Source: Bacteroidota bacterium (GTDB lineage: Bacteria; Bacteroidota; JABWAT01). Taken from it: 48,130 nt of DNA. The DNA is taken from assembly GCA_017303995.1 (NCBI GenBank), contig JAFLBE010000033.1, positions 1 through 48,130 on the forward strand, written 5' to 3'. Of the stretch, positions 8,363-48,130 are shown piece by piece. Below the pieces are notes generated by a model, which was not told the DNA's origin, did no database searches, and worked only from the letters and a program-made list of their open reading frames with translations. A program made the position numbers and the translations under genes. Positions within the stretch are counted from its first letter, which is position 1. Every line of letters starts with the position of its first letter.

Positions 8363-8363
8363 A

Positions 8364-11885: not shown

Positions 11886-11886
11886 T

Positions 11887-13167: not shown

Positions 13168-13765
13168 AAAAAGATTGGAACCGGTTGAGTGGACAGCTAA
13201 AAAGGCAACACCTGGTTTTACCGAATATGAAGCAATAACTGAACTTCGAGAAGCCTTACTGGAAGAACAAGGATATATCTGTGCTTATTGCATGAGAAGA
13301 ATCCCTGCGAAGGATGTGAAAGTAGATGCGACATCTAAGATTGAACATATAAAATCGCAGGAAAGCAGGCCAGATTTACAATTAAGCTATGCTAATATGG
13401 CTATTTGCTGTCCGGGTAACCTGAACGATGAGGCGCATTGCGATAAATCAAAAGGTGGCAATAATGTTAGCTTCAATTTGCATACGGCTGCTTTACAACA
13501 ATCTATTACCTATACATCTTTTGATGGCTCTATTAGTTCCACCAATACAACCTGGAACAATGAGATGAACGATTTGCTCAATCTTAATCATGAGCTGTTA
13601 AAGGCGAATAGAAAAGAAGCGCTATCGGGCATAATAGAAATTCTGAACGCTGTTGGATGGTCCAAACATACAATTAATACTAAATTGAATCTGTGGAGAC
13701 AACGGAATACAGAAGGAAAGTATTATCAGTTCTGTGGAATCATCATTTGGTACCTTGAAAAATAA
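13154..13765 (+). CDS. PtuB-like HNH endonuclease (Septu-like pair, part 2)
   Basis: 203 residues of the TIGR02646/retron-type HNH family. The zinc-knuckle Cys pair CAYC (about 45-48), the catalytic IEHIKSQ (His about 70) and the second pair around CCPGNLNDEAHCDKSKGG are visible, in the order typical of this family. The start overlaps the ATPase gene, suggesting translational coupling and equal expression. Known homologues cut DNA or tRNA when released by their ATPase partner; the target here is unknown. Confidence 0.82.
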   Translation: MIQIKKRLEPVEWTAKKATPGFTEYEAITELREALLEEQGYICAYCMRRIPAKDVKVDATSKIEHIKSQESRPDLQLSYANMAICCPGNLNDEAHCDKSKGGNNVSFNLHTAALQQSITYTSFDGSISSTNTTWNNEMNDLLNLNHELLKANRKEALSGIIEILNAVGWSKHTINTKLNLWRQRNTEGKYYQFCGIIIWYLEK

Positions 13766-13776
13766 TTAAGAGTAGC

Positions 13777-16700
13777 ATGAACACCAACAACTTAAAACGA
13801 TTTGCTAAAGAAGCCCGAATTAAATTACTCGATCAGGTGGGTCGTAAGCTGGAGTTTGTTTTAACTCACGATACAGCAGAGTTGCGGGGTAAACAGAAAG
13901 AAGTAGAGCAACTCAAAAAGAAAATAACGGAGCACACCAAAGAACAAGTGGTTGAAATGGTGGCTTACACCTGGTTTAACCGCTTGATGGCGTTGCGTTT
14001 TATGGATGCAAATGGGTACACGATACCCAAAGTTGTTACCCCATTACCCGGGATGACCAACCCTGAGGTTTTACAAAATGCTTTGGCTGGTAACATAGAG
14101 CCCGAATTGAAACTCGACCGCCAACGGCTCAATGATTTACTTGACGGTAAAACTGCTGCCACAGATGCCCATACCCAAGCCTACAAAATGTTGTTGGTTG
14201 CTTCCTGTAACCAATGGCACACTGCAATGCCGTTTATGTTTGAACGGATCAGTGATTATTCAGAATTGTTATTACCAGATGATCTGCTTAGTGATTATAG
14301 TATTGTAGCCGATATTCGAAATGGGATGAGCGATGAAGACTGCCAGCAGGAAGAGTTAATTGGCTGGCTATACCAGTTTTACATCTCTGATAAAAAAGAT
14401 GACGTTTTCGATAAGCTGAAAAAGAATATTAAAATTACAGCTGAAAACATACCTGCAGCTACCCAGCTTTTCACGCCACGCTGGATTGTACGCTATATGG
14501 TTGAAAATACATTGGGAAAACTCTGGCTTACTTTAAAACCCAACAGCAAATTGCGCGACCACATGCCTTATTATATAGAAGCACCTGAAGGCAACACGCC
14601 AGCCCCGGTACCTGAAGATCTTCTGACAACGAACAACAACCAACTGGCAACTAAACTTACTTTTCTTGACCCTTGCCAGGGCAGCGGACACGTCTTGGTA
14701 TATGCATTTGACCTTTACACTAAGATCTATGAAGAAGAAGGCTACAATACTAATGAAATACCGGCACTTATTCTGACGCACAATCTTTTTGGTATCGATA
14801 TTGATGAACGGGCAGCACAGTTAGCTGCCTTTGCTCTGACCATGAAAGCCCGCAGCTATTACCCCCGCTTTTTACGAAAACCAGTGCAACCACATGTTAT
14901 TGCCCTGGAAAACGTAAATGAAGAAACCATTAAACAAACGGTGAAATTACCGGTTACGGTAAAGGGTAAGGTGAAATTCAGATATGAGGATTTAAGTCTG
15001 AATTTGCTTACACAGGCAGACAATTTTGGATCCCTGATTCAGATTGAACCGGATGAAGCGAAAGTTATTCAAATACAGGAAGGCAGCATCTGGCAGGAGC
15101 AACAACAGAAATTGAAAGACCAATCTGAATATCTGAGCAGACAATATCATTGTGTGGTGACGAATCCTCCATACTTGGGGCAAAAAGGAATGAATTCTTT
15201 GCTGAAGGTTTTTATTGAAAAAGAATATTTGAAAAGCAAGTATGATTTGATGGCCTGTTTTATGGAAAGATGCCTTGAATTTAATTCTATAAATGGTAAG
15301 TCGGCTCTTATAAACCAGCATAGCTGGATGTTTTTAAGTAGTTATGACGAATTAAGACTGCAATTTATTCGGAATGTTCAATTTGAAAACATGCTCCACC
15401 TGGGATCAAGAACATTTCCAGAAATTGGAGGTGAAGTTGTTCAAAATACGGCATTTACTTTTTGCAAATGTATGCCTCATATGAATTGTAAATTCATACG
15501 ATTGACTGATTTTGGGAATTCACAGATTAAGGACGATAAAACGAAACTCGCGATTCAAGATAATAATTGTAGTTGGTTTTTTACTGCAAATCAATATGAT
15601 TTTGGAAAAATTCCAGGGAGTCCTTTTGGTTATTGGATTAGCAAAACAACAATAAACAATTTTACAACAGGTAAAAGCTTAGGAGAAATAGCTGATCCAA
15701 GATTGGGAATGTCCACCAACGATAATGGTAGATTTCTACGTTTTTGGCATGAGGTCAATAAAAATAATATTTCATACAATTCAATTTCATTAGAAGCTGC
15801 TAAAAACTCAAACTGTAAATGGTTTCCTTATAATAAAGGTGGAGGGTTTAAAAAGTGGTATGGGAATTTTGAAAATGTTATCAATTATGAAAATGACGGC
15901 AAAGAGGTCAAAGAATATGCAGCTTACCTTTATAAATCATTTTCAAGAACAGTCAAAAATATACCCTATTTTTTTAGAGGCGGCTTAACATGGTCTCTTA
16001 TTTGTTCTGGTAAATTCACTTGTCGGAAATTAGATGATGGTTTTGTAATTGGTGATGCAGGACCAACTTGTTACCCCAAAACTTCTGACTATTTGTATGT
16101 ACTGGGCTTACTAAATACTAAACCTGCGGATGAAATATTAAAACTATTAAATCCGACAATGAATTATAGTCCTGGAGTTTTAAAACTATTTCCAGTTATT
16201 TCAATAAATGAGATGAATGTAATAGATGGAATTGTTGAAATTGCCTTGGCAATTTCAAAAGAGGACTGGTTCAGTAGAGAAACATCATGGGATTTCACAA
16301 AAAATGAGATTATTAAGCAAAAAGAGGAAGAAATAGCATCAGCATTTAAAAAGTATTCAAATGATTGGTCCGAAAAATTTATTATTCTACATATAAAGGA
16401 AGAAGAACTCAACAAACAATTTATCGAAATATACGGTTTAGAGAATGAATTAACACCAAATGTCCCATTAGAAGAAATAACGATTCTTCAGGAAGAATCA
16501 AAGATTGTCAAAGGTGAATTATTTATAGACCCTATCCCTGTATTATTGCAACTGTTGAGCTATTCTGTCGGCTGTTTATTTGGTCGCTACAGCCTTGACA
16601 AACCCGGTCTAATCTTAGCCAACCAAGGCGAAACTTTACAAGAATTCCTAAAGCAAGTTCCTAACCCCTCTTTCATGCCCGATGATGACAATATTATCCC

Positions 16701-17268
16701 GGTATTGGAGGGAGAATGGTTTACCGATGATATTGTAGGGAGATTCAAAGTATTCTTAAAGGCAGCTTTTAGTGAGGAGCATTTTGAAGAAAACCTCAAC
16801 TACATCGAAGATACAATTGGCAAAGACATTAGAAGGTACTTTGTAAAAGACTTTTATTATGACCACATCAAGCGGTATAAAAAGCGCCCTATTTACTGGA
16901 TGTTCAGCAGTCCCAAAGGTCATTTCAAAGCGCTCATATACATGCACCGTTACCAACCTGATTTGTGCAGCAAACTGCTCAATGATTACCTGCAAGCATT
17001 CATCAGTAAACTCGAAGCTGCAAAGCAAACCCAAACCATGCTGAGTTTGCGGGAAGATATTTCTGTCCGTGAAAAAACGTTGGCTATTAAAGAGATCGAT
17101 AAGTTTGAAGCCATGATCAAGGATTGCCGTGAATATGAAAAAACATTGTTCACTATTGCCACTCAAAAAATTACTATTGATCTGGATGATGGGGTAAAAG
17201 TGAACTACCAGAAATTTAAAGAAGTGGTAGTGCCTATTAAAGGTTTGGAAAAAGACGAGGAAGAATAG
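13777..17268 (+). CDS. pglX: BREX-1 adenine-specific methyltransferase PglX
   Basis: 1163 residues, matching BREX type 1 PglX. The N-terminal helical part has TPRWIVRYMVENTLGKLW (about 230-250); motif I is LDPCQGSGH (about 299), motif IV is NPPY in CVVTNPPYLGQKG (about 465), so this is an N6-adenine methyltransferase of the gamma class. The downstream half (about 500-900) should be the target-recognition region, and the last 150 residues are charged and helical. It marks host DNA at an asymmetric site so that BREX spares it. Gap to the HNH gene is 11 bp. Confidence 0.93.
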   Translation: MNTNNLKRFAKEARIKLLDQVGRKLEFVLTHDTAELRGKQKEVEQLKKKITEHTKEQVVEMVAYTWFNRLMALRFMDANGYTIPKVVTPLPGMTNPEVLQNALAGNIEPELKLDRQRLNDLLDGKTAATDAHTQAYKMLLVASCNQWHTAMPFMFERISDYSELLLPDDLLSDYSIVADIRNGMSDEDCQQEELIGWLYQFYISDKKDDVFDKLKKNIKITAENIPAATQLFTPRWIVRYMVENTLGKLWLTLKPNSKLRDHMPYYIEAPEGNTPAPVPEDLLTTNNNQLATKLTFLDPCQGSGHVLVYAFDLYTKIYEEEGYNTNEIPALILTHNLFGIDIDERAAQLAAFALTMKARSYYPRFLRKPVQPHVIALENVNEETIKQTVKLPVTVKGKVKFRYEDLSLNLLTQADNFGSLIQIEPDEAKVIQIQEGSIWQEQQQKLKDQSEYLSRQYHCVVTNPPYLGQKGMNSLLKVFIEKEYLKSKYDLMACFMERCLEFNSINGKSALINQHSWMFLSSYDELRLQFIRNVQFENMLHLGSRTFPEIGGEVVQNTAFTFCKCMPHMNCKFIRLTDFGNSQIKDDKTKLAIQDNNCSWFFTANQYDFGKIPGSPFGYWISKTTINNFTTGKSLGEIADPRLGMSTNDNGRFLRFWHEVNKNNISYNSISLEAAKNSNCKWFPYNKGGGFKKWYGNFENVINYENDGKEVKEYAAYLYKSFSRTVKNIPYFFRGGLTWSLICSGKFTCRKLDDGFVIGDAGPTCYPKTSDYLYVLGLLNTKPADEILKLLNPTMNYSPGVLKLFPVISINEMNVIDGIVEIALAISKEDWFSRETSWDFTKNEIIKQKEEEIASAFKKYSNDWSEKFIILHIKEEELNKQFIEIYGLENELTPNVPLEEITILQEESKIVKGELFIDPIPVLLQLLSYSVGCLFGRYSLDKPGLILANQGETLQEFLKQVPNPSFMPDDDNIIPVLEGEWFTDDIVGRFKVFLKAAFSEEHFEENLNYIEDTIGKDIRRYFVKDFYYDHIKRYKKRPIYWMFSSPKGHFKALIYMHRYQPDLCSKLLNDYLQAFISKLEAAKQTQTMLSLREDISVREKTLAIKEIDKFEAMIKDCREYEKTLFTIATQKITIDLDDGVKVNYQKFKEVVVPIKGLEKDEEE

Positions 17269-17301
17269 TTGGTGGTTGATGGTTGTTGGTTGTTGGTCGG
17301 T
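17268..17301. repeat. Left low-complexity arm (GGTTGTTGGTTG type)
   Basis: A GTTG-rich tract directly after the pglX stop. Its reverse complement resembles the tract at 17686-17722, so the two form loose inverted arms around the four-helix-bundle gene. Confidence 0.6.
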
Positions 17302-17328
17302 AGGAAATACAGCAAGAGAAAACTAAAA

Positions 17329-17685
17329 ATGAAAAATTACACTGATTTGGATGTTTGGATAAAGGCAAGAGAACTTGCTTCGCTTTGCTATGATTTAACT
17401 AAATCATTTCCTAAAGAAGAGTTGTATGGATTAACTTCTCAATTGAGGCGGTCTGCAGTTTCCATTCCTTCAAACATTGCTGAGGGATGCGGAAGAAGTA
17501 CTTCAAAAGATACCATTCAGTTTCTTTTTATAGCCAGAGGTTCTGCTTATGAATTGGAAACTCAGTTTTATGTTTCCTTCGATTTGAGATACATTTCAGA
17601 CGATCAGCTTAAATCAGTCCTTGAAAAAATCACCGAATGTAAAAAGTTACTCAACGGTTTCATCAATTATTACCAAACCCTATAA
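17329..17685 (+). CDS. Four-helix bundle protein (S23/23S-IVS type)
   Basis: 118 residues of the four-helix-bundle family first known from intervening sequences in 23S rRNA: opening YTDLDVWIKARELA, then LTSQLRRSAVSIPSNIAEG, the family's most conserved segment, and a closing Tyr/Leu helix. Function is not known; relatives bind nucleic acid. It is not a BREX core gene. The flanking inverted GTTG/CAAC tracts recall the paired ends of 23S IVS elements. The start ATG 17329 is favoured because the longer frame would translate the repeat. Confidence 0.85.
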   Translation: MKNYTDLDVWIKARELASLCYDLTKSFPKEELYGLTSQLRRSAVSIPSNIAEGCGRSTSKDTIQFLFIARGSAYELETQFYVSFDLRYISDDQLKSVLEKITECKKLLNGFINYYQTL

Positions 17686-17722
17686 ACGAACAACCATCAA
17701 CGATCAACCATCAACGATCAAC
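17686..17722. repeat. Right low-complexity arm (CAACCATCAACGATCAAC type)
   Basis: Two to three copies of an 18-bp unit, CAACCATCAACGATCAAC, directly after the four-helix-bundle stop, complementary in character to the arm at 17268-17301. Confidence 0.6.
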
Positions 17723-17735
17723 TTACAACTCAATC

Positions 17736-19121
17736 ATGATTACTTCCGACGATATTAAATTATTAATTGCCAGTGGCGAAGGATATAATGCCGAATTCAA
17801 GGTGTCCGTTCCGGCCAAAGTCAGAGAATTGTCAGAAGAAATATGTGCCTTTGCCAATGCAGCAGGCGGGGTTTTGTTACTTGGTGTGAATGATTCGAAC
17901 CAAATCGTTGGGGTAAGCATTGATAACGCAAAGCGCTCTGCTATTCAAAACAGTTTGGGTGAAATCACCCCTCATTTACCCTGTTCTCTTTCCTTATTAG
18001 AGGTCGATGGTTTTACGGTTGGTGTGATTGAGGTGCCTTCCGGTCAGCAAAAGCCCTATGTTTTATCTGGGGCAATATTTGTTCGTATTGGTCCGAATAC
18101 CCAAAAACTCACCACTGCTGAGCAAATGCGTGATTTTTTTCAGCAGTCTGATCGGATTTATTTTGATGAAGCGCCTTGTGAGGGATTTTCCTGGGTCACC
18201 ATGGTAGATCAAGATTTCCTTCCAATTTTTAATTCAGAAGCACATATCAGTTCTGGTGTTCCCCGTGAACAACTGTTTGATAATTTAAAACTATTCGGTT
18301 CAAGACGAACCTTCAAAAATGGTGCTGTTTTGTTTTTCGGGAAAAATCCTGAACAGGTATTCGATAAGGCCATAGTAAGGTGTCTTGCTTTTCAGGGAAC
18401 AGACAAACGATATATTAGTGACGATAAATCGTTCGGTGGAAATCTTTACCACCAATACCAGCAGGCTATGCAATGGCTGAAGGGTAAACTCAACATCCGT
18501 TATGATATTGAAGGTCAGGGTTCAGGTCCCAGAAAAGAAATTTGGGAAATACCTGAAACCATTTTTAAAGAAACCATCATTAATTCACTTTCTCACCGCG
18601 ATTATTATGACAAAGGCGGCGTCATTCATATTGAAGTATTTGATGACCGGGTTGAAATTTCTAACCCGGGTGGTTTGGTAAGCGCCATCCCTGAAGCGGA
18701 GTTTGGCAAAAGAAGCCATTCGAGAAACCCATTGGTTTTTGGTCTTTTTGCCCGGATGCACCTTGTTGAACAAGTTGGTTCAGGTATTGGTCGTATAAAG
18801 GATTTGATGAAGGAAGCTGGCCTGCCTGATCCCGAATTCCGGAAAGAGGGAATTTTCGCAGTTATCCTTAACCGTCCCTCCAAAAGTGCGGAGAAAGGTA
18901 AGGAGAAAAGTGTGGAGAAAGGTAAGGAGAAAAGTGCGGAGAAGATCCTTGAAATGATCAAGTCGAATAAGAATATTACAACAAAAGAGCTGGCAGAAAA
19001 GATTGGATTATCACCAAGTGCGATCGAAAAGCAAATCAAGAAATTAAAAGAGAGTGATTTAATCGAACGTGTTGGCGCTGATAAAGGCGGATATTGGAAA
19101 ATCCTAAAAAAAGAAACTTGA
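17736..19121 (+). CDS. AlbA_2/RecG-like regulator with C-terminal winged helix
   Basis: 461 residues. The N-terminal Schlafen AlbA_2 domain (about 5-130) shows EFKVSVP, EICAFANAAGGVLLLGVND and VRIGPNTQ. A central ATP-binding region (about 270-375) has ETIINSLSHRDYY, DRVEISNPGGL and the closing GSGIGRIKDLM. A Lys/Glu repeat linker (about 383-403) joins a winged helix (ILEMIKSNKNITTKELAEKIGLSPSAIEKQIKKLKE). Proteins of this kind are common beside BREX and restriction genes and are taken as regulators. It stops 4 bp before pglZ. Confidence 0.85.
   Translation: MITSDDIKLLIASGEGYNAEFKVSVPAKVRELSEEICAFANAAGGVLLLGVNDSNQIVGVSIDNAKRSAIQNSLGEITPHLPCSLSLLEVDGFTVGVIEVPSGQQKPYVLSGAIFVRIGPNTQKLTTAEQMRDFFQQSDRIYFDEAPCEGFSWVTMVDQDFLPIFNSEAHISSGVPREQLFDNLKLFGSRRTFKNGAVLFFGKNPEQVFDKAIVRCLAFQGTDKRYISDDKSFGGNLYHQYQQAMQWLKGKLNIRYDIEGQGSGPRKEIWEIPETIFKETIINSLSHRDYYDKGGVIHIEVFDDRVEISNPGGLVSAIPEAEFGKRSHSRNPLVFGLFARMHLVEQVGSGIGRIKDLMKEAGLPDPEFRKEGIFAVILNRPSKSAEKGKEKSVEKGKEKSAEKILEMIKSNKNITTKELAEKIGLSPSAIEKQIKKLKESDLIERVGADKGGYWKILKKET
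18882..18944 (+). repeat. 24-bp in-frame tandem repeat in the AlbA_2 gene
   Basis: About 2.6 copies of a 24-bp unit beginning AAAAGTGCGGAGAAAGG, encoding eight-residue units KSAEKGKE. The copies differ by one or two bases. Being a multiple of three, changes in copy number would alter the linker length without breaking the frame. Confidence 0.85.
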
Positions 19122-19125
19122 ATTG

Positions 19126-21639
19126 ATGAATAATTTATCGACAATAAATCAAAAAGTACAAGCTGCATTGGAAAAACTATTCAAACAGCACCGGCTTGTT
19201 TTTTGGTATGATGAAAAAGCGGAAATGACAGATTTATTCGATAGTCTTCATTTTCCGGACGCAGAAAAAATAACTATTGAAAATAATGAGTTTACATTAA
19301 AGCATAAACTGTTGATTGAACAGCCGGTACAGCGCTTTTTACTGTATCAGGCAAAACCAAAGCCACTTGATCATGAAAATTGGTTGTTGGATTTATTACT
19401 CTCCAACTATGAATTTCATACAGAGGCTTCTTCACTCTACCTTCAAGACCTTGAGCTGCCCCCTGAATTCAAGTCGTTGGTTCAGCAGCATGAAGAGTTT
19501 TTTGCCAATGAAAAACGAATCAATGATTTAAAAACTTTACTTGAGCCTGGTGACCGGGAAACCAGAATCAGATTAAAAATGCTGTCCATTCTTTGTTCGG
19601 TTGAACCAGAATGGGAGAAAGTTTTGTATGCCTTGTTTGCCGAGATACAAAAGAACAAACAGGATAAATACAAGGCTATCGAAAAGTTTGGGCTCTCAAC
19701 CTTTCTCTGGGAAACTATAGAGAAGAAGTATGGATACAAATCATCGGCATCAACGCTGAAAGACCTGTTATTGCATCTGGTTCAGGATAATTTCGAAAGA
19801 AGCCTTTCAGCGGGCAAACCAAAGCTGAACAAGGAAGCCTATCTATTTGTAAATCGCTGGAAGGAAAATAGTAAAGCCAGGCAAATTTATTGCGACTGGA
19901 GCCTGCAGTTAGAAAGCGACCTGGGTGTTGAAGGTTCCATTCAGAATATGCAAACTGAACACTTATTGGATTCTGATACTTATGCTGTGATTGACAAGAA
20001 AATCATCATTGGCATCAGAGATCACATTGTAAACAACACATCATCCAATTACATTCTGCAGGAATGGATTGAAAAGAGACGGGTGAAATTCTTCTTTGCT
20101 GACTTTTCACAGATTTATGAAGCATTGAGCAATGCAGCTACTTTACTGGATGAAATCAGGAAGGTGAATTTAAGCATACAAAGTCCGGACGATGGGTTTA
20201 AAAAGTATGAAAAACAGTGGTATAAAATTGACCGGTTGTACAGAAAATACATTTTTTCAAGTGAACAGGCTGAGCATCAAAATATTTTAAAGGATCTAAC
20301 CTTACAGATTGAAAAAGCATACGGAAATTCGTTTCTGCTCAAATTAAGTGATAACTGGCAACATGCAATCGATGACATGAAAGTTTGGCATATTGACCAC
20401 ATCATTAACCAGAAAAGCTTTTATCAGAATTGGGTTTCTCCTTATCTGAGAACAGAAAATCGGGTTTTTGTAATTATTTCTGATGCCTTGCGATATGAGT
20501 CAGCAACTGAATTAAAAGATTTGATTGTAAAGGAAGACAAATACACGGCAACATTAACTGCTGTTCTTGGATCGCTTCCATCGTACACGCAACTGGGAAT
20601 GGCATCTTTATTACCCCATTCTTCATTAACCTTCGATGAACAAAATGACATTGTGTATGCTGATGGAATAAGTACACAAGGCACACCTAATCGCACCAAG
20701 GTTTTGCAAAAGAGCTATCCTGGCAGCATAGCCATTGGTGCTGAAGATTTTCTGAAAATGAAATCAACCACCGAAGGCAGAGAGTTTATCAAGCCTTACA
20801 ATGTCATTTACATTTACAGCAATCATATTGATAAAATCGGCGATGATAAAACCTCAGAAGGAAAAGTGTTTGAAGCAACTGAAACCGAGTTTGAATATCT
20901 ATTACGGATGCTGAAACACATCAACAATATGAACGGTTACAATATGATTATTACAGCCGATCATGGTTACCTGTACCAGCATAACCGGTTAGATGAATCT
21001 GATTTCACAGAATTTACACCTTCAGGTTCGGTTTTTAAAACCAGCAGAAGATTTGTGTTGGGGAAAAATTTAGTGTCGAGCTCATCTGCTCAAAAATGGG
21101 AAGGAAAGGCGTTGGGATTCGCAGATCAAACCGAAGCTCAGATTCCAAAATCAATTAACCGCATCAGAATTCAGGGCGCAGGCAGTCGTTTTGTACACGG
21201 GGGAGCAAGCTTGCAGGAAATAGTTGTTCCCGTTTTAGAAATAAATAAAGCCAGAAAAAGTGATGTCGAACAGGTAGAAATTGATATCATCAGCGGATCT
21301 TCAAATATTACGAGCAATGCATTTGCAGTAAGTTTCTATCAAAAACAGCCGATTACTGATAAAATTCAGCCACGCCAATTAAAAGCATCATTTTATACCC
21401 GTTCGGGTTCATTAATTTCAGATGTTAATACCTTGTTGTTTAACAGCACTGAAAAAGATTCAATGGCAAGAGAGAAAAGACAGGTTTTTCTTTTTACTTC
21501 AGAAGCATCAAAGCAAAATGGGGAGGACGTCCATTTGAAACTTGAAGAACAAATTGAAGGCACCAATCAGTACAAATTATATAAAATGATCACTTACAGA
21601 ATGCTTATCGCATTTAGTAGTGAATTTGACGAATTTTAA
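19126..21639 (+). CDS. pglZ: BREX-1 phosphatase-superfamily protein PglZ
   Basis: 837 residues, usual for BREX type 1 PglZ. The alkaline-phosphatase-like core carries metal-binding motifs: VIISDALRYE (Asp, about 449) and IITADHGYLY (Asp-His, about 610), followed by GSRFVHGGASLQEIVVPVLE with another conserved His. The N-terminal half is helical. PglZ is a BREX core protein with metal-dependent nuclease/phosphatase-type activity shown for some homologues. ATG 19126 is preferred over TTG 19123. Confidence 0.92.
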   Translation: MNNLSTINQKVQAALEKLFKQHRLVFWYDEKAEMTDLFDSLHFPDAEKITIENNEFTLKHKLLIEQPVQRFLLYQAKPKPLDHENWLLDLLLSNYEFHTEASSLYLQDLELPPEFKSLVQQHEEFFANEKRINDLKTLLEPGDRETRIRLKMLSILCSVEPEWEKVLYALFAEIQKNKQDKYKAIEKFGLSTFLWETIEKKYGYKSSASTLKDLLLHLVQDNFERSLSAGKPKLNKEAYLFVNRWKENSKARQIYCDWSLQLESDLGVEGSIQNMQTEHLLDSDTYAVIDKKIIIGIRDHIVNNTSSNYILQEWIEKRRVKFFFADFSQIYEALSNAATLLDEIRKVNLSIQSPDDGFKKYEKQWYKIDRLYRKYIFSSEQAEHQNILKDLTLQIEKAYGNSFLLKLSDNWQHAIDDMKVWHIDHIINQKSFYQNWVSPYLRTENRVFVIISDALRYESATELKDLIVKEDKYTATLTAVLGSLPSYTQLGMASLLPHSSLTFDEQNDIVYADGISTQGTPNRTKVLQKSYPGSIAIGAEDFLKMKSTTEGREFIKPYNVIYIYSNHIDKIGDDKTSEGKVFEATETEFEYLLRMLKHINNMNGYNMIITADHGYLYQHNRLDESDFTEFTPSGSVFKTSRRFVLGKNLVSSSSAQKWEGKALGFADQTEAQIPKSINRIRIQGAGSRFVHGGASLQEIVVPVLEINKARKSDVEQVEIDIISGSSNITSNAFAVSFYQKQPITDKIQPRQLKASFYTRSGSLISDVNTLLFNSTEKDSMAREKRQVFLFTSEASKQNGEDVHLKLEEQIEGTNQYKLYKMITYRMLIAFSSEFDEF

Positions 21640-21644
21640 CTTAA

Positions 21645-21817
21645 TAGTTTTTAGTTGGTGGTTGGTCGTTGTTGGTTGCTCATTAAGAGTAAGCCCAAAG
21701 CTAACCTCTAAAAGTCAGCAACTAACAAATAAAATCTTTAAACAGTCAACTAAAAAACCAAAAGCTAACCTCCATCAACAAACAACTAACAACAAACAAC
21801 TAACAACAAACAACTAA
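21645..21817. repeat. Inverted GTTG/CAAC arms around a 93-bp core without a gene
   Basis: The pglZ-brxL gap starts with a GTTG-rich tract (21645-21679) and ends with tandem CAACAAACAACTAA units (21773-21817), which pair loosely as inverted arms. Inside, AAGCTAACCTC occurs twice. The arms resemble those around the four-helix-bundle gene. It could be an emptied or decayed copy of the same element, and in RNA it would form a hairpin between the two genes. Confidence 0.6.
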
Positions 21818-21819
21818 AC

Positions 21820-23847
21820 ATGGATGCATTAGATACAAAACTTAATCAATCCTTTGCCGGTAAGGTTGTCCGTAAGGATTTAACCAAGCAGATTAAAGAA
21901 GGTGCAAATGTGCCTGTGTATGTATTGGAATACTTACTGGGCATGTATTGTGCAACTGATGATGAAGCAACTATTCGGGATGGGGTTTTAAAAGTTAAAC
22001 AGATTTTGTCTGAAAACTACGTCAGACCTGATGAATCTGAAAAAATAAAAGCAAAGATCAAGGAAAAAGGCCGGTTTAAAATCATTGACCGTGTTACCGC
22101 AAAATTGAATGAAAAAGAAGACCGATATGAAGGTCAGCTTTCAAATATCAACATCAGAAACGTAATTGTTGATGATAGTTACATCAGAAAGTACGAAAAG
22201 TTATTGGCTGGCGGAATTTGGTCAATTTTGACACTTGAATATTGGTTTGATGAAAATTCGAATGATTCGCCATTCAAGATTGTTGACTTGAAACCCATAC
22301 AGATGCCTGAGACTGACATTTCTGATTTTATTAAACACAGACAGGATTTTTCACTGGAAGAATGGATTGATATCATTTGCCGAAGTGTGGGGATGGAGCC
22401 AATTAATCTTGATGAAAGAACAAAGTGGCACCTGGTTGCAAGAATGATTCCATTTGTTGAAAAAAACTTCAATATCTGTGAATTAGGTCCGAGAGGAACC
22501 GGCAAGTCTTATGTTTATGATGAAATATCACCTTATTCAATTTTGATTTCTGGCGGACAAACAACGGTTCCTAATCTATTTTACAACATGAGCACCCGGA
22601 CTGTTGGTTTAGTCGGAATGTGGGATGTTGTGGCATTTGATGAAGTTGCCGGAATAAACATGAAGGATAAAGATGGCATTCAGATCATGAAAGGATTCAT
22701 GGCCAATGGGTCTTTCAGCAGAGGTAAAGAAAGCGTAAATGCTGATGCCTCAATGGTCTTTGTTGGGAACATTAATGGGTCTATTGAGAATCTTGTAAAA
22801 ACCAGCCACTTACTTTCACCATTCCCAAAAGAAATGATTGACACCGCATTTTTCGATCGTTTCCATCATTACCTTCCGGGATGGGAAATACCAAAAATGC
22901 GTCCTGAGTTTTTTACAAATGGGTACGGATTCATTTCAGATTATTATTCTGAATGTTTGAGAGAAATGCGAAAATATAATTTTTCTGATACAATCGGGCA
23001 GTTTTTCAGGTTAGGAAAAGATTTAAACCAACGGGATACAATTGCAGTAAAACGAACTGTGAGCGGGTTGGTAAAACTATTATTTCCGGATGGTAAGTTC
23101 ACTAAAAATGATATTCGTAAATGTATTGAATATGCTTTAGTGGGTAGGCGGAGAGTAAAAGAGCAATTGAAAAAAATAGGTGGAATGGAGTTTTACGATG
23201 TCCATTTTAGCTATATCGATCTTGAAGATAATGAAGAACATTTCGTAGGTGTTCCTGAAAGTGGAGGAAATACACTTATACCTGAGGGTGATTTGCCTGC
23301 AGGAACCGTTTATGCGGTAGGAAAAAATTCTGAGTCAGGACATAAAGGTCTATTCCGGTTAGATATCCAGAAAATGCCGGGTAACGGCAAAATAAGTGAT
23401 ACCGGTTTTGGTGGTGGTACTGCAATTCGGGAGGAATTAAAGGAAGCCGTAAATTTTGTCCGTTCCAATCTGAACAGGATTACCCAATCGGCAAAATTCG
23501 GTGAATATGAATTTCATCTTAAAGCCACAGATTTGAATGGCATCGGAAATTCTAAAGGTCTTGAACTTGCAATGTTCCTCTCAGTTGTTTCATCAATCAC
23601 AGAGCGACCCTTACAATCCCAAATGGTTATTTTAGGTTCAATGAGTATTGGCGGTGCAATAATCGGGTCAGACAACTTAGCCGAATTTCTTCAGGTTTCC
23701 GCAGATAGTGGGGCAAAGAAGGTTTTAATACCAGCAGCTGATATGGCACAACTTGCAAAAGTACCGCCTGATCTCATTTCAAAATTCAGTTTGATCATTT
23801 ATTCAGATCCTGTAGAAGCTGCATTTAAGGCGATGGGACTTGGATGA
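21820..23847 (+). CDS. brxL: BREX ATPase BrxL (Lon-like C-terminal fold)
   Basis: 675 residues, as expected of BrxL. AAA+ signatures: Walker A LGPRGTGKSY (about 221-230) and Walker B VVAFDEVAGI (about 271), then sensor FVGNINGS. The C-terminal part (about 560-675) follows the Lon proteolytic fold: KGLELAMFLSVVSSITERPL, GSMSIGGAIIGS and KKVLIPAAD. By eye the Lon catalytic Ser aligns with Gly of SKG and the Lys position with Phe/Glu of NLAEF, so peptidase activity is doubtful. BrxL forms DNA-loaded ring assemblies in studied systems. It completes the type 1 gene set. Confidence 0.93.
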   Translation: MDALDTKLNQSFAGKVVRKDLTKQIKEGANVPVYVLEYLLGMYCATDDEATIRDGVLKVKQILSENYVRPDESEKIKAKIKEKGRFKIIDRVTAKLNEKEDRYEGQLSNINIRNVIVDDSYIRKYEKLLAGGIWSILTLEYWFDENSNDSPFKIVDLKPIQMPETDISDFIKHRQDFSLEEWIDIICRSVGMEPINLDERTKWHLVARMIPFVEKNFNICELGPRGTGKSYVYDEISPYSILISGGQTTVPNLFYNMSTRTVGLVGMWDVVAFDEVAGINMKDKDGIQIMKGFMANGSFSRGKESVNADASMVFVGNINGSIENLVKTSHLLSPFPKEMIDTAFFDRFHHYLPGWEIPKMRPEFFTNGYGFISDYYSECLREMRKYNFSDTIGQFFRLGKDLNQRDTIAVKRTVSGLVKLLFPDGKFTKNDIRKCIEYALVGRRRVKEQLKKIGGMEFYDVHFSYIDLEDNEEHFVGVPESGGNTLIPEGDLPAGTVYAVGKNSESGHKGLFRLDIQKMPGNGKISDTGFGGGTAIREELKEAVNFVRSNLNRITQSAKFGEYEFHLKATDLNGIGNSKGLELAMFLSVVSSITERPLQSQMVILGSMSIGGAIIGSDNLAEFLQVSADSGAKKVLIPAADMAQLAKVPPDLISKFSLIIYSDPVEAAFKAMGLG

Positions 23848-26973: not shown

Positions 26974-27034
26974 AGTTGTTCCAATTTTTGTTTTATTTAG
27001 TAATGGTCACCACTAAAAACCTTCTTATTTTCCT

Positions 27035-27112
27035 TATAATGGATGAGCTTCGCAGAACTTCGTTAGCCCAATCAAGTTGAGGATGACATTGTTTAGGTTT
27101 TTAGAGGTGCCC
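27035..27112 (+). repeat. Left copy of an inverted repeat bounding the 9-kb island
   Basis: TTATAATGGATGAGCTTCGC and AACTTCGTTAGCCCAA, then GAGGATGACAT and GTTTAGGTTTTTAGAG, occur in the same order in the reverse complement of 35844-35967, which carries about 45 extra bases in the middle. The matched parts are about 90% identical. Confidence 0.75.
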
Positions 27113-27126
27113 TTTATGTTTTGTTT

Positions 27127-27528
27127 TTACCCGAAAATTTTACGCCATTTCACATGCTTAAACTGGACTGTTTTTTTAACCGATCCATCGGGTAGTTTTG
27201 TTTCTTCATTAATTCGTTCTGTGGTCGATTGCAGGCAGATCATGCCGGAATCACGTCCCATTAAGTTCATGTGAATGGTAGCAGTCTGATCACCTACTGC
27301 AAGAAGATAGTGTCCCGAAGGATTGCCATTGGTACCCTCTGAAATGGTCTGAAAAATATCTTCACACAATGTTAAAATCTGTGGAAGTATAAAGTCAGGC
27401 GGAATAGCTGACCATCTCAATTGAAGTGGCTTGGGAAGATATTGAAATTGGGTTATCCCGAATTCCTCTTCAAGAGAATGAATTTGATCTTCTGTAAGTT
27501 TATGAGAAAAAACCAGAAACACAGTCAT
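27127..27528 (-). CDS. Csx20-like protein (candidate ring nuclease)
   Basis: 133 residues from ATG 27528, which overlaps the stop of the gene before (ATGA). Features that recall Csx20, an ancillary protein of type III CRISPR systems reported to act on cyclic oligoadenylates: the opening TVFLVFSHKLTEDQ, then FQYLPKPLQLRWSAIPP, a GHYLLAVGDQTATI strand and the closing DGSVKKTVQFKHVKWRK. This is recognition from memory of the family pattern, not from an alignment. If right, the operon is tied to cyclic-nucleotide signalling although no polymerase gene is here. A longer frame from 27588 would lie inside the previous gene. Confidence 0.5.
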   Translation of the reverse strand: MTVFLVFSHKLTEDQIHSLEEEFGITQFQYLPKPLQLRWSAIPPDFILPQILTLCEDIFQTISEGTNGNPSGHYLLAVGDQTATIHMNLMGRDSGMICLQSTTERINEETKLPDGSVKKTVQFKHVKWRKIFG

Positions 27529-28178
27529 GAGCTTTTCCTTAGTAAGTTGTGTTGCTGTTCTGCTGATTTTACCAACCTGTTTAGCCAATTCCGGTCATAA
27601 TCAGCCATCAATTTACATCTGAGCTGATTGGTATCTGGTTGGTTGATACCGGCCTCATTACTCAATATTGTGATGTTGCAGTTAACTAAATTTTGCCTGA
27701 ACAGAAAAATGGATTTTTGGTTTGCCAGTAAAAACATCCAGATATCCCCGGCAATCTGAAGAAAAAGTTTTTGTTTTGTATTCTGATCCATAAACCCGGT
27801 TTGAGATATTTTATCAGCAATCCACAAACGCAGGTCGTCAGCAATCTCAATCAACCGGGTACGGGTCATAATCCAAACCCCGTAATGTTGAAAAAGCATA
27901 GCCAATAATAAATCCGGATTTAACCCCCTTGAATAGGCAGGAAAACAAACTTTTGCTGTCGAAAAACCTTGAGTAAAAATAAACTGTTTTCCTGAATAAA
28001 GCTGGACATAAAATTCAGTTTTCTGAATCCATAAGGAATCAGAAAGCAAACTCGGAATGAGTTTTTCAGAATCGGAAACTACGGTCTTGAATCCTTTGAG
28101 CAGAAAAGTCAGATACTCTACTTCAGAATTAAAACCTGGCGGATTCTGGCTTTTTTGAATAATGCCAGGCAATTTCAT
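27525..28178 (-). CDS. Unknown protein of the leftward operon (217 aa)
   Basis: Mostly helical soluble protein with many Trp, Phe and Leu residues, e.g. LLLAMLFQHYGVWIMTRTR and DIWMFLLANQKSIFLF; no signal peptide or known motif. The start codon follows the stop of the vWA gene without a gap (TAAATG) and its stop overlaps the start of the Csx20-like gene, so all three are translated together. Function unknown. Confidence 0.75.
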   Translation of the reverse strand: MKLPGIIQKSQNPPGFNSEVEYLTFLLKGFKTVVSDSEKLIPSLLSDSLWIQKTEFYVQLYSGKQFIFTQGFSTAKVCFPAYSRGLNPDLLLAMLFQHYGVWIMTRTRLIEIADDLRLWIADKISQTGFMDQNTKQKLFLQIAGDIWMFLLANQKSIFLFRQNLVNCNITILSNEAGINQPDTNQLRCKLMADYDRNWLNRLVKSAEQQHNLLRKSS

Positions 28179-29114
28179 TTATTGTCTTTCCTGGGCAAAG
28201 CTATCACCCTTTTTGTTTAAAAAGTTTGTAACCTGACGGCTCGCTGATTGTATTGACCCCTCACCGGGAATCATCTCAAATCGTTGAACTTTACTACTTT
28301 TCATCCAGTTCGTCCAGTAGTCCTCCAGAATTTGGCGCTCTGATGGATTTAATTGGTTTTTCTGCCGGAATTCAGCAACGATAACCTCCCATTTCTGATC
28401 CTTCAGATTAACTGGAATAAGCCCGGATTCGCCATTTGCGATTTGAGCTTTCAACCGGGGATCCCGAATTACCTTTTCAGCCGACATCCAGGATTGAAAA
28501 TGTTCATCTGCAGGCCTGCCAGCCAGAAATCTGGATTCAAACTGGATATAGCCATCTGTTAGTATAATCAGAATATTTCTAACCTTAACAGTTGGAGAGG
28601 AGGGCACAAAATATCGGGTTAAGTCAAAAGCCATAAACCTCCAGATATCTGCGCCTGCAAAAGTGGGTTCAGAAACCGCACTTTGGTATAAACTATTGGT
28701 TGAAGGCCTGAAACCGGCAAAAAAACGATCAGTTTCCCGCTTTTTCTGAACTGCCGGTACAGATGAAAGATCCAGATCCAACTGATCAAGATTAGCGGAA
28801 AGCGCATTCTCATTGCCGGTAGGTTGTGGAGCAACCAATATCCGGAACTGATCAGCGGAATTCAGGTAAAGTTCTGATTTTACCTTTTCCCTGAAATACT
28901 TCCCGATCACTGAAATCATTGCTGTATCCCGTGTCCACTGATCAGGGTGTTCTGCCGGACTAATCCGGTCAGAAAGATCCAGCAAGAGGGTCAGATTAAT
29001 GGCTTCCCGGACTACCGGTGCAGGCTCAGTTTCTTCGCCACCAGATACCGAGATGGTGATCAGAACACCTGCAGCAAATAAAAACCCTAAAGTGATGAGA
29101 AGTGTTTTTGACAT
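28179..29114 (-). CDS. Membrane-anchored von Willebrand factor A-like protein
   Basis: 311 residues. An N-terminal hydrophobic segment (4-24) acts as signal anchor or signal peptide. The following domain opens with the strand LTLLLDLSDRIS: Asp46, Ser48 and the next acidic residue form a DxSx-type MIDAS, and ILIILTDGYI (Asp187) supplies the last MIDAS Asp. Extracytoplasmic placement is likely. vWA domains bind partners through a metal. It is 3 bp downstream of the four-helix membrane protein, its natural partner. Confidence 0.8.
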   Translation of the reverse strand: MSKTLLITLGFLFAAGVLITISVSGGEETEPAPVVREAINLTLLLDLSDRISPAEHPDQWTRDTAMISVIGKYFREKVKSELYLNSADQFRILVAPQPTGNENALSANLDQLDLDLSSVPAVQKKRETDRFFAGFRPSTNSLYQSAVSEPTFAGADIWRFMAFDLTRYFVPSSPTVKVRNILIILTDGYIQFESRFLAGRPADEHFQSWMSAEKVIRDPRLKAQIANGESGLIPVNLKDQKWEVIVAEFRQKNQLNPSERQILEDYWTNWMKSSKVQRFEMIPGEGSIQSASRQVTNFLNKKGDSFAQERQ

Positions 29115-29117
29115 GAG

Positions 29118-30449
29118 TTACTCCATAATTGTATTTGAGAGAGGGGAATTGTCAACAGAACCCAGATACATAGCCTTAAACCGGTCGAGTTCGATATTGG
29201 ACTGAAGACTGATTTCACGGGCTTTATCAGGCTGACCAAGGCTTGAAAAGTGGCGGTTAACCCATTCCTGCCATCCTGCCAAAAAGGTATTCAGAACAGA
29301 GAACAGTTCATCTCTGCGAATGAAAACGCCGGTCAGTGATTTCTCATAGCTGTCGATGGTTTCTTCCAACCCCTTCATCCGGGTTTCAAGTTCAGCTTTT
29401 GTCCGGTTTAGTCCTTCCAGCTCTTTTTCCAGTTCATCACGAAGGTTTTTACGGTTATTCCAGAGGTTCTTGGCAAACTCCCGGTTTTTTTCTTCCATCA
29501 TGAATTCTGAAAGTAATTTTCCCCAGGCAAAGTAGGCGACGAAACCGAGGATAAAGACCAGATAAAATCGAGGATCGATAAACAACGCACCAAAAGTCCA
29601 GGGTTCTGTTTTAATACCCATCACAAATTCCATGTTATAGCCTTGATAGGTAATCATGAAGGCAAGAACGAAATCAACGATTAACCCTAAAATGATGTAT
29701 ACCGGGCTAATGTATGGTTCTGTGTTTGCACTTTCTGTTTTTAACCCTTTTCTGAAAGGATGGGCCAGGTAACCAAGTCCAAGGATGAAAAACCCACCCA
29801 AAATGATTACCAAAATTGGGGCGCCGGCACGCCATGCCAGTTTGAATGAATTGGGATCAAAAACGGAGTTTAGCAGGTTATGCTGGTTTGATGAAGTAAT
29901 CGTACTGAAATCAATGGTTTTAAACATTGCCATGTACAAGGCAGAACTATAAAACAGAATGAGATAGAGGGTAATGGCAGCAAGGGTGACCGCAAGAAAA
30001 ATATAATTCAGACGGTTGAACGGTGATTCAATTTTAAATTTCTGAGGATCTGTATTGATCTCATCCATCTCACGGGAAAGTAAACTGATTTTGCTTTTCA
30101 CAGGCTCAATTTTTAATTCAGTTAAATTGAGAATATCCTGACCCAGTTGCTGTTTTTCAGGACGAAGTCTCGACAGCACCTGAAGGGCAGAATCCGCAAC
30201 TGACTTGCATGACTTTTTAAATTCACTGTAAACAATAGAAAGGCAATCGGTGATGCTGTTCGGATTGCATTGATGCCGGATCGCAAGTTCCATTCCAAGC
30301 TCATACCACCTGTGATTTTGATTTCCCATTGGAGTTGGTTCTGTATTCGGATGGGTCTGCACGATGCCGGGAAGTTCGTGGGGAACCGGACGTGAACTCT
30401 TTTCTGACTGATGATTGCCATTCATTGTTTGTGTTTTTTCGGGTGTCAT
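29118..30449 (-). CDS. Four-helix membrane protein with coiled coil
   Basis: 443 residues from ATG 30449. The N-terminal 145 residues are soluble with a helical region; transmembrane helices are near 149-169, 208-228, 248-268 and 293-313; a long coiled coil (about 320-372) follows, with LRDELEKELEGLNRTKAELETR. The ends should be cytoplasmic. I do not recognise a family. The longer frame from 30590 would add 47 residues without conserved look and would take up the divergent promoter. First gene of the leftward operon. Confidence 0.8.
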   Translation of the reverse strand: MTPEKTQTMNGNHQSEKSSRPVPHELPGIVQTHPNTEPTPMGNQNHRWYELGMELAIRHQCNPNSITDCLSIVYSEFKKSCKSVADSALQVLSRLRPEKQQLGQDILNLTELKIEPVKSKISLLSREMDEINTDPQKFKIESPFNRLNYIFLAVTLAAITLYLILFYSSALYMAMFKTIDFSTITSSNQHNLLNSVFDPNSFKLAWRAGAPILVIILGGFFILGLGYLAHPFRKGLKTESANTEPYISPVYIILGLIVDFVLAFMITYQGYNMEFVMGIKTEPWTFGALFIDPRFYLVFILGFVAYFAWGKLLSEFMMEEKNREFAKNLWNNRKNLRDELEKELEGLNRTKAELETRMKGLEETIDSYEKSLTGVFIRRDELFSVLNTFLAGWQEWVNRHFSSLGQPDKAREISLQSNIELDRFKAMYLGSVDNSPLSNTIME

Positions 30450-30699
30450 GGGAGCCTCTGTTTGGTTTTGTATTTTGGGATTCGGGAGTCTATACCACAA
30501 CAGAGTGTTTTTGTCGGGGAAATTTAAAATATAACAAAAAAAACTTTCCACAGGACAAGATTTAATACTTTGTGTTCGGAAATCCAACATGAGTTAATTG
30601 ACCAGGGTTAGAAGATCTTTTCACAAGACAACCTGATTTATGAATTTGCCTTTACTTTGGAATTCTGATATTTTAACAATCAAATAGTGAAAGGCACTT
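30450..30699. promoter_or_regulatory. Divergent promoter region of the island
   Basis: About 250 bp between two start codons in opposite directions (30449 leftward, 30700 rightward). It must hold the promoters of both operons, so the two are probably controlled together. I see AT-rich stretches (AATATAACAAAAAAAACTTT near 30530) but no clear -35/-10 pair. AAAGGCA lies 6 bp before the rightward start. Confidence 0.5.
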
Positions 30700-39411: not shown

Positions 39412-39631
39412 GTTTCAATACTCTTTCGATTCAAAGTCCTGTTTGTGTATGGTTACTGGTCACATATGACAGGTAACGGGTTAAATACATGGAATATCAC
39501 AAGTAAAGTTACTTATATCTCAATTGCTTTGTTAAAATACGCTTGGGAAGGGAATTCGAAATAATTCGACTTCTGTCTTCCAACTTCTTACTTCTGTATT
39601 TCAAATACTCTTGCGAGTCAATGTCATCGGT
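39412..39631 (-). repeat. Module-border element A with two CRISPR-repeat relics
   Basis: Starts with a repeat relic at 39412-39448 (GTTTCAATACTCTTTCGATT and on, 8-bp handle kept) and ends with another at about 39596-39631 (AAATACTCTTGCGAGTCAAT kept). Between them are about 147 bp including CACATATGACAGGTAACGGG. The whole element recurs at 44892-45108. It fills the gap between the helicase start (39327) and the next gene (39681). Confidence 0.75.
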
Positions 39632-46658: not shown

Positions 46659-48055
46659 ATTTCAATACTCTTGCGAGTCAAAGTCCTGAGTAAATGCAGG
46701 GAACGAACTTTCCTGGACGGCAGTAGCCGTATGTTGGATTATGTTTCAATACTCTTGCGAGTCAAAGTCCTTAGTAAATATATGAAATTTGGTACAAGTA
46801 CGAAAAGAGAGACAATGGGTTTCAATACTCTTTCGAGTCAATGTCCTGAGTAAATTTCAACATTCAACCTCATACCCATACTACCAGAGAAAAGGTTTCA
46901 ATACTCTTGCGAGTCAAAGTCCTGAGTAAATAATTGAGATATGAACCAGAACCAGAACCACTACCATTTTAAAAGTTTCAATACTCTTACGAGTCAAAAT
47001 CCTGAGTAAATCTAAAAGAATTTAATATTCTTATTAATGCAGGATTGCAAACGTTTCAATACTCTTACGAGTCAATATCCTGAGTAAATGTCGGGACAAA
47101 TGGTTGATCAACCGAAGAGTGGGCGGAACCGTTTCAAATACTCTTACGAGTCAATATCCTGAGTAAATCACAGATCATTGAAACTGATTTAGCTGATGGA
47201 CAAGTAGTCGTTTCAATACTCTTACGAGTCAATATCCTGAGTAAATATCCCACTTATGCCGAAAAAATCAAACAGCTCGTTGACTACTGGAACAGTTTCA
47301 ATACTCTTACGAGTCAATGTCCTGAGTAAATGTAGCTACAGCTGCCTTCTTCATCGGCCGTTCGGTCGGTGTGAAAGTTTCAATACTCTTGCGAGTCAAA
47401 GTCCTGAGTAAATAATTCATTGATTCAACAGGCTGAAGTACTTTTCTACAAAGACGGGTTTCAATACTCTTTCGAGTCAATGTCCTGAGTAAATATTAAA
47501 ACGCAATGAACAGTATAACCAAGTTCCAACACTTGTTTCAATACTCTTACGAGTCAATATCCTGAGTAAATGGTGAACTTGTACTTGTTGAAGTTGAAAC
47601 TGATAAAGGTTTGTTTCAATACTCTTACGAGTCAATATCCTGAGTAAATAGGATAATAAACTTATAAACATATTTAAAGACAATGAGAAAAGGTGTTTCA
47701 ATACTCTTACGAGTCAATATCCTGAGTAAATTTGATCATATCAACTACATGTTAGCTGATGGTCGTATGCAAGTCGTTTCAATACTCTTACGAGTCAATA
47801 TCCTGAGTAAATTGCTCGTGAACAACGAACGTGCGAAAATTGAAAATGCTCCCCCACAGAAGTTTCAATACTCTTGCGAGTCAATGTCCTGAGTAAATCC
47901 AGCTTCATAGAGTATCTGTCCACTGTTGGCGTCGATGTCAGCGTTTCAATACTCTTGCGAGTCAATATCCTGAGTAAATTCGACACACTCGAGATCACTG
48001 AAAAGACGATGATGGTTAACATCATGTTTCAATACTCTTGCGAGTCAATGTCCTG
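46659..48055 (-). CRISPR. CRISPR array, 18 repeats, 17 spacers
   Basis: Repeats of 37 bp start (plus strand) GTTTCAATACTCTT and end TCCTGAGTAAAT. They begin at 46659, 46743, 46819, 46895, 46975, 47053, 47131 (38 bp, one extra A), 47210, 47295, 47377, 47458, 47535, 47613, 47695, 47776, 47862, 47943 and 48026 (cut after 30 bp by the junction). Spacers are 39-49 nt, all different. ACTC and GAGT inside the repeat form a small hairpin. Three positions vary between repeats. On the minus strand repeats end in ATTGAAAC, the common crRNA handle, and the left end is the degenerate one, so transcription is leftward with the leader at the lost right end. No cas genes are here; the handle suits type I-B or III. 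Confidence 0.98.
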
Positions 48056-48130
48056 GCAACCCGGTCGCACAGCCCCATCACCAGTTTGACATCATGCTCG
48101 ATGAGCAGGACCGTCACACCGTCGCGACGA
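48056..48130 (-). CDS. Foreign fragment: LivG-like ABC transporter ATPase
   Basis: GC-rich, unlike everything before it. The minus strand encodes RRDGVTVLLIEHDVKLVMGL and CDRVA, the D-loop/H-loop region of branched-chain amino acid transporter ATPases (LivG), in a style typical of Proteobacteria. It starts exactly where the last CRISPR repeat breaks off, so it is most likely a chimeric join. Confidence 0.8.

What the first reader, a model, noticed from the sequence alone, without database searches (positions are those of the whole stretch)
27127..27528. Csx20-like protein outside a cas operon
Pattern similarity to Csx20 (opening FSHKLTEDQ, YLPKPLQ, W..IPP, closing DGSVKK...FKHV) in an operon with membrane and vWA proteins. 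Csx20 is otherwise known with type III CRISPR. If true, the operon's signal could be a cyclic oligoadenylate made by a type III complex or by another cyclase.
Basis: partly seen in the sequence, partly recalled or inferred. Interest (0 to 1): 0.6.

Follow-up and report, generated by a model that had tools for sequence, protein, structure and literature searches.

The report
Ring nuclease beside CRISPR-linked membrane module
A small enzyme family known for switching off a CRISPR alarm molecule sits here in an operon with a membrane protein and an outward-facing protein, a pair that related bacteria carry inside CRISPR loci, so the pair may be an unstudied way of turning that alarm into an effect at the cell envelope.

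Summary
It is last in a tight four-gene operon: four-helix membrane/coiled-coil protein (TM), vWA protein (fold confirmed), an orphan 217-aa protein, csx20. No other cas gene was found in the 19 window proteins scanned, but "outside CRISPR" is too strong. The window ends in an 18-repeat CRISPR array whose repeat recurs only on the contig carrying a type III-D operon with a GGDD Cas10 and a CARF nuclease; the two contigs probably abut inside one array. TM and vWA are an obligate pair (80 of 80 loci). Elsewhere the pair lies inside or beside type III loci in Bacteroidota and beside cas1-cas2 in a Geobacteraceae MAG, and is fused into one protein within a type III-B locus on a Runella plasmid. 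Besides the window, Csx20 accompanies it in four loci. Reading: an undescribed type III accessory membrane module with a cA4 ring nuclease as off-switch. Csx20 and the association are shown; cA4 control of the membrane pair is inferred.

The parts
27127..27528 (-). csx20, 133 aa, ring-nuclease family
   Evidence: NF040559 88.9 bits, cut-off 70; PADLOC Csx20 1.6e-23; keeps the six columns invariant in a 9-member Csx20 alignment
27525..28178 (-). 217-aa orphan protein, overlaps the csx20 start by 4 nt
   Evidence: no family in NCBIfam, Pfam or PADLOC; 0 of 388 other phylum genomes
28179..29114 (-). vWA-domain protein, 311 aa, N-terminal membrane anchor
   Evidence: AlphaFold2 pLDDT 86.6, pTM 0.84; VIA-align Z 13.2 to the vWA subunit of TFIIH and 12.6 to an integrin I domain; hydrophobic segment 5-23
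29118..30590 (-). membrane protein, up to 490 aa: four hydrophobic helices between two long coiled coils; true start may be a later ATG (residue 48, 56 or 88)
   Evidence: hydropathy and alternative starts; AlphaFold2 model pLDDT 74.4, residues 1-88 below pLDDT 50
46660..48062 (+). CRISPR array, 18 repeats of about 37 nt (the last one cut short), runs into the contig end
   Evidence: same repeat only on this contig and on the type III-D contig C74
39413..39440 (+). solitary degenerate CRISPR repeat
   Evidence: 1 mismatch to the repeat pattern

Best explanation
The operon is an accessory module of this genome's type III-D CRISPR system. When Cas10 senses target RNA it makes a cyclic oligoadenylate, most likely cA4. 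Besides the CARF nuclease in the cas operon, a membrane complex made of the TM/coiled-coil protein and the vWA protein responds. Its long coiled coils are predicted to face the cytosol and its vWA domain the outside, so the alarm would be turned into an effect at the envelope (permeability, or activity of an outside partner). Csx20 cleaves cA4 and resets the module. Shown here: Csx20 identity, the tight operon, the cyclase-competent type III-D system, the CRISPR array on the same contig, the vWA fold, the obligate TM-vWA pairing and its recurrence in type III loci with ring nucleases. Inferred: that the TM-vWA pair is cA4-controlled, which protein senses cA4 (no CARF was found; either the TM protein itself, as Csx23 senses without CARF, or the 217-aa orphan), the topology and the envelope effect.
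For: Csx20 profile hits. Cas10, Csx10-like Cas5, Cas7, Csx19, a TIGR03986 RAMP and Cas6 next to a CARF-PDDEXK protein on contig C74; GGDD motif. The repeat is found only on the window contig and C74, both breaking inside the array. In one search ten of 99 genomes have a csx20 match; these ten are exactly the ones of 12 tested with a Cas10 match over cut-off. TM-vWA adjacent on one strand in 80 of 80 loci, plus a natural fusion. TM-vWA with type III genes or csx20 in 8 of 105 loci: window, L051, L052, L071 (cas1-cas2 and array only), L192, L193, L194, L198. Ring nucleases beside the pair in all six of these other than the window and the short L071 contig: Csx20 in L051, L193, L194, L198, TIGR02584 over its cut-off in L052, L192, L193, L194. 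Cas10 in 4 of 5 phylum genomes with the non-TerB form against 0 of 14 with the TerB form, baseline 72 of 389.
Against: No cOA-binding domain was recognised in TM, vWA or the 217-aa protein. 95 of the 105 TM-vWA loci have none of the tested CRISPR genes in the held flank (two more have only a cas1), most in Flavobacteria-type contexts with a TerB-like gene, so the module also works without CRISPR. L195 and L196, close relatives of the type III-linked L192-194, lie in non-CRISPR contexts. Csx20 is 19 kb from the array and on the far side of it from the cas operon, and the C55-C74 junction is not sequenced. The CRISPR-linked pairs do not form one clade. The 5-versus-14 split was drawn after seeing the data.
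Confidence: 0.5

Rival explanations
1. Csx20 works in trans for the CARF nuclease of the type III-D operon; its place behind TM-vWA is chance clustering in a defence island (BREX genes lie upstream) and the pair has nothing to do with cOA.
For: The III-D operon has its own CARF-PDDEXK protein and no Csx20 of its own; a defence island surrounds the operon: BrxA, BrxC, an Eco57I methylase, PglZ, BrxL. Published Csx20 is an extrinsic ring nuclease that can act on any cA4 (PMC12409355, passages).
Against: Translational coupling of csx20 to the operon; Csx20 beside TM-vWA again in G010, G876, G837 and the Runella plasmid.
Confidence: 0.2
2. TM-vWA is a general Ter-like envelope-stress module that is co-located with, or co-regulated by, type III CRISPR without sensing cyclic oligoadenylate; Csx20 is independent of it.
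For: In the Flavobacteria-type form a TerB-like gene precedes the pair in 13 of 14 sampled loci; 95 of 105 loci lack the tested CRISPR genes; no CARF in the pair.
Against: TerB is absent from the window operon, and the non-TerB form tracks Cas10 (4 of 5 against 0 of 14); fusion and placement inside a type III-B locus.
Confidence: 0.22
3. The operon answers a non-CRISPR cyclase (CBASS-like) and Csx20 ends that signal.
For: Csx20 also cleaves cA3 at high enzyme concentration (PMC12409355, passages), a signal shared with CBASS.
Against: A cyclase-competent Cas10 and a CRISPR array on the same contig give a simpler source. No CBASS search was run.
Confidence: 0.05

Closest known systems
Csx20 ring nuclease (NF040559; PMC12409355)
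   Same: Profile over the curated cut-off; conserved Gly, Thr-x-x-Arg and C-terminal Arg columns; genome with a type III-D system
   Different: Not in the cas operon; last gene of a TM-vWA operon about 19 kb from the array
Membrane effectors of type III CRISPR: Cam1, Csx23, Cap1, CorA (PMC11229360 passages; PMC10808066, PMC11014256 and PMC12642688 abstract openings in search listings)
   Same: Integral membrane protein in a type III context; Csx23 also senses cA4 through a dedicated soluble domain
   Different: Two separate chains, one predicted to be extracytoplasmic; long coiled coils; no recognised sensor domain; no sequence or fold match found
vWA-related systems near CRISPR loci (UAS list in PMC10910872, passages)
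   Same: That survey names vWA-related systems associated with CRISPR, some alongside transmembrane proteins; this module may be among them
   Different: The named MoxR-vWA-VMAP systems have a MoxR ATPase; none is in this operon. The supplement could not be read
Ter-type stress genes (TerB, Pfam PF05099)
   Same: The Flavobacteria-type pair has a TerB-like neighbour
   Different: No TerB beside the window pair; vWA predicted outside the cytosol

Membership tests
Csx20 | score over the curated NF040559 cut-off | tested here: met
   88.9 bits against 70
Csx20 | conserved residues of the family | tested here: met
   Q15, G79, T102, R105, F123, R129 invariant in 9 members including the window
Csx20 | genome has a cyclase-competent type III system | tested here: met
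   C74 operon, GGDD
Csx20 | encoded inside the type III locus | tested here: inconclusive
   not in the cas operon; array with the same repeat on the same contig; junction with C74 inferred
Csx20 | CARF-like derived Rossmann fold | not tested
Csx20 | cleaves cA4 | not testable with these tools
   needs an assay
vWA domain | vWA Rossmann fold | tested here: met
   Z 13.2, rmsd 3.0, 176 aligned; no Pfam vWA hit by sequence
vWA domain | intact DxSxS metal site | tested here: not met
   D46-L-S-D-R replaces DxSxS, a motif recalled and from no call; TDG at 186-188 kept
Known type III membrane effectors (Cam1, CARF-TM) | CARF fused to transmembrane helices | tested here: not met
   no CARF hit in the operon proteins other than Csx20
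Csx23 | relatedness to Csx23 | tested here: inconclusive
   no hit in PADLOC, NCBIfam or Foldseek-PDB; whether each library holds a Csx23 model was not checked
Ter module | TerB neighbour | tested here: not met
   none in the window operon; present in the Flavobacteria type

The most novel reading that the evidence does not exclude
TM-vWA is a new, CARF-less, two-chain type III CRISPR effector that carries a cytosolic cyclic-oligoadenylate alarm across the membrane to an extracytoplasmic vWA domain: outward signalling or envelope remodelling rather than nucleic-acid damage, with Csx20 or a TIGR02584-type ring nuclease as its off-switch. It was recruited more than once from a general envelope module that Flavobacteria keep with TerB.
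Probability: 0.3. Interest if true: 0.75.

Novelty: new variant of a known kind. Interest (0 to 1): 0.52.

Why it matters
Most known type III effectors cut nucleic acids, and the few membrane effectors known carry their own sensor domain. A paired membrane/outer vWA module that travels with ring nucleases would add an envelope-directed output to type III immunity and pose a testable question: how a cytosolic cyclic nucleotide is read without a recognised sensor domain. It also shows that a ring nuclease in an operon outside the cas genes can point to an unrecognised partner of the system.

Tried and rejected
Rejected: 'Csx20 with no CRISPR in sight'; the same contig ends in a CRISPR array and Cas10 is in the genome. 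Rejected: the 217-aa gene as a widespread sensor; no homologue in 388 other phylum genomes. Led nowhere: PDB sequence searches with Csx20, vWA and TM (only chance or coiled-coil matches); Foldseek and VIA-align of the TM model (long-helix look-alikes only, none at E<=0.001); A3 in 297 genomes of the Geobacteraceae MAG's phylum (that genome only) and in 98 genomes of G136's class (G136 plus one partial hit, E 4.9e-5); vWA in plasmids (one record, the Runella one) and viral contigs (one contig). A CBASS search and a Csx20 fold were not done. The Cas10 profile PF22335 also rings in E. coli, so matches near 25 bits (G001, G002, G000:C37) were read as GGDEF-type and not counted as Cas10; G394's match was 26.2 bits (27.4 with its neighbours), but its GGDD and operon order support it. 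In one search two further partial hits (G829, G870) were dropped as TM-vWA: G829's stretch showed no TM or vWA match, G870 was not fetched. Papers: two earlier surveys of type III accessory genes are not held; supplements could not be read.

Full report
1. NCBIfam names it CAS_Csx20 with 88.9 bits over a curated cut-off of 70 (E 3.3e-25); PADLOC's Csx20 models agree (1.6e-23). In a nine-member Csx20 alignment the window protein keeps all six invariant columns; it is closest to the annotated Csx20 of an Arcobacter plasmid (30 per cent), then to those of a Persicobacter and a Runella plasmid (28 per cent each), all three of which lie in type III cas loci. Csx20 was reported to cleave cA4, and cA3 at higher enzyme concentration (PMC12409355; passages and the Discussion section read).

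2. The operon. Four genes run leftwards: a membrane protein (29118-30590), a 311-aa protein (28179-29114), a 217-aa protein (27525-28178) and csx20. Gaps are 3, 0 and -4 nt, so they are probably co-transcribed. The membrane protein has four hydrophobic segments at about 197-215, 257-275, 297-315 and 333-351, with long charged regions on both sides; its model (pLDDT 74.4) shows helices 110-180 and 340-420 as very long helices, read as coiled coils. The 311-aa protein has a hydrophobic N-terminus and a vWA fold: model pLDDT 86.6; VIA-align Z 13.2 to the TFIIH vWA subunit and 12.6 to an integrin I domain. Its metal-site motif is degenerate (DLSDR). Four of the other seven vWA N-termini tested fit a lipobox pattern and two more (G876, G833) have a Cys at the end of the hydrophobic stretch, while the window and Geobacteraceae proteins have none, so an extracytoplasmic vWA is likely but inferred. 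The 217-aa protein matches no library and no other genome of 389 searched, own included.

3. CRISPR in the same genome. The Cas10 palm-domain search found contig C74. Around it lie a CARF-PDDEXK protein, a 509-aa Cas10 with GGDD, a Csx10-type Cas5, a Cas7 protein, Csx19, a TIGR03986 RAMP and Cas6: type III-D. The window itself ends in an 18-repeat CRISPR array. Searched with up to two mismatches, this repeat gives 36 matches in the genome, 19 on the window contig (18 in the array and one solitary copy at 39413) and 17 at the end of C74, none elsewhere; the pattern read backwards gives 0. Both contigs break inside the array and the orientations fit a head-on join, so the two contigs are most simply neighbours. 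Csx20 then lies about 19 kb from the array on one side and the cas operon about 4 kb from it on the other. The join is inferred.

4. Csx20 in relatives. Ten of 99 genomes (own included) match the Csx20 profile at E<=0.001, one over the cut-off (the window). All ten have a Cas10 match over cut-off, whereas G001 and G002, tested beside them and without csx20, do not. In seven of the ten, csx20 and Cas10 lie on one contig 4 to 19 kb apart. The exceptions are G021 (its csx20 is on a 4-kb contig), G010 and the window. G010 and the window are the two that have TM-vWA beside csx20.

5. The TM-vWA pair. The vWA protein has relatives in 19 of 394 phylum genomes. A scan of genome contigs found 393 relatives and kept 80 loci; in 80 of 80 the TM gene is adjacent on the same strand. 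With the unnamed-genome loci, the window and the plasmid, 105 loci (some held twice from two collections) were searched for cas1, cas10, CARF, csx1, csx20 and RAMP genes: 8 have type III genes or csx20 (L071 only cas1-cas2 and an array, seen), 2 more only a distant cas1. The eight are the window; L051 (G010: csx20-TM-vWA); L052 (G136: TM-vWA next to a CARF-PDDEXK protein, a TIGR02584 ring nuclease and cas1, with a type III Cas10 operon about 16 kb away); L071 (Geobacteraceae MAG, genome with GGDD Cas10); L192, L193 and L194 (cas2-cas1-vWA-TM-TIGR02584-CARF nuclease, csx20 in two of them, then Csm or Cmr genes); and L198, Runella sp. SP2 plasmid pSP2_2, where TM and vWA are one 704-aa protein between a WYL gene and cas2-cas1 of a type III-B locus with its own Csx20. 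L195 and L196 are close relatives outside CRISPR loci.

6. Two forms. In the Flavobacteria-type form a TerB-like gene precedes the pair in 13 of 14 sampled loci (of three TerB-like proteins tested, two pass Pfam's cut-off). None of the 14 genomes with that form has Cas10; 4 of 5 with the other form do (G252 does not), against 72 of 389 in the phylum. Fisher p = 0.0013 for the split and binomial p = 0.005 for 4 of 5, but the split was made after looking at the data and the numbers are small. Outside the phylum sample, G394 and G395 have Cas10 and the L072 genome, a MAG, does not. A 32-member tree pairs the window with G136 (support 0.94); the CRISPR-linked lineages do not form one clade, which fits repeated recruitment.

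7. Mechanism. Cas10 in this genome can make cyclic oligoadenylate, judged by its GGDD motif; Csx20 would remove cA4. That Csx20 is coupled to TM-vWA, and that ring nucleases stand beside the pair in six of six other loci with enough flank (L051, L052, L192, L193, L194, L198), suggests that the pair is, or belongs to, a cA4-driven output. No sensor domain was recognised, so the sensor may be the TM protein or another subunit. The direction of the effect, at or outside the membrane, rests on predicted topology. This is inference, and rivals are given.

8. Novelty. Csx20 is a known family, here a new member. For TM-vWA with type III CRISPR no description was found in five searches of the held library; passages of PMC11229360 and PMC12669027 name no vWA protein. 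PMC10910872 (passages) lists vWA-related systems near CRISPR, some with transmembrane proteins, and may already contain this pair in its unread supplement. Two older surveys of type III accessory genes are not held.

Noticed in passing
window 27000-27112: A dispersed intergenic repeat lies just past the csx20 stop; a query holding it gives 42 matches (one of them the query itself) across the genome.
   Followed up: no
window 48056-48130: After a truncated last CRISPR repeat the contig ends in sequence that looks foreign (reads like an ABC-transporter ATPase on the other strand, recalled): probably a chimeric assembly end.
   Followed up: no
window 39413-39440: A single degenerate CRISPR repeat 7 kb from the array: a relic of an older array or of a deletion.
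   Followed up: no
window 7138-23847: A BREX-like island (BrxA, BrxC, Eco57I-type methylase, PglZ, BrxL) with an AAA ATPase/HNH-like pair inside (pair named from sequence, not searched).
   Followed up: partly
L202:866-8789: A viral-collection contig carries a TM-vWA pair with a small gene between them, behind a 1455-aa DEAD helicase like DpdF: the pair may serve other defence systems too.
   Followed up: partly
phage records MW202458.1 28300-28641 and PV175345.1 69069-69386: Weak Csx20-like matches (E 9e-3 and 6e-3) in two phage records, possibly phage ring nucleases.
   Followed up: no
L052:5108-6001: The 297-aa gene behind the G136 vWA has no family hit; its DHH and DGD motifs recall DHH phosphoesterases (motif recalled), a possible further signal-degrading enzyme.
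   Followed up: partly
L051:2573-2740: A run of N with a duplicated csx20 5' end just before csx20 in G010: scaffold gap or withheld stretch.
   Followed up: no
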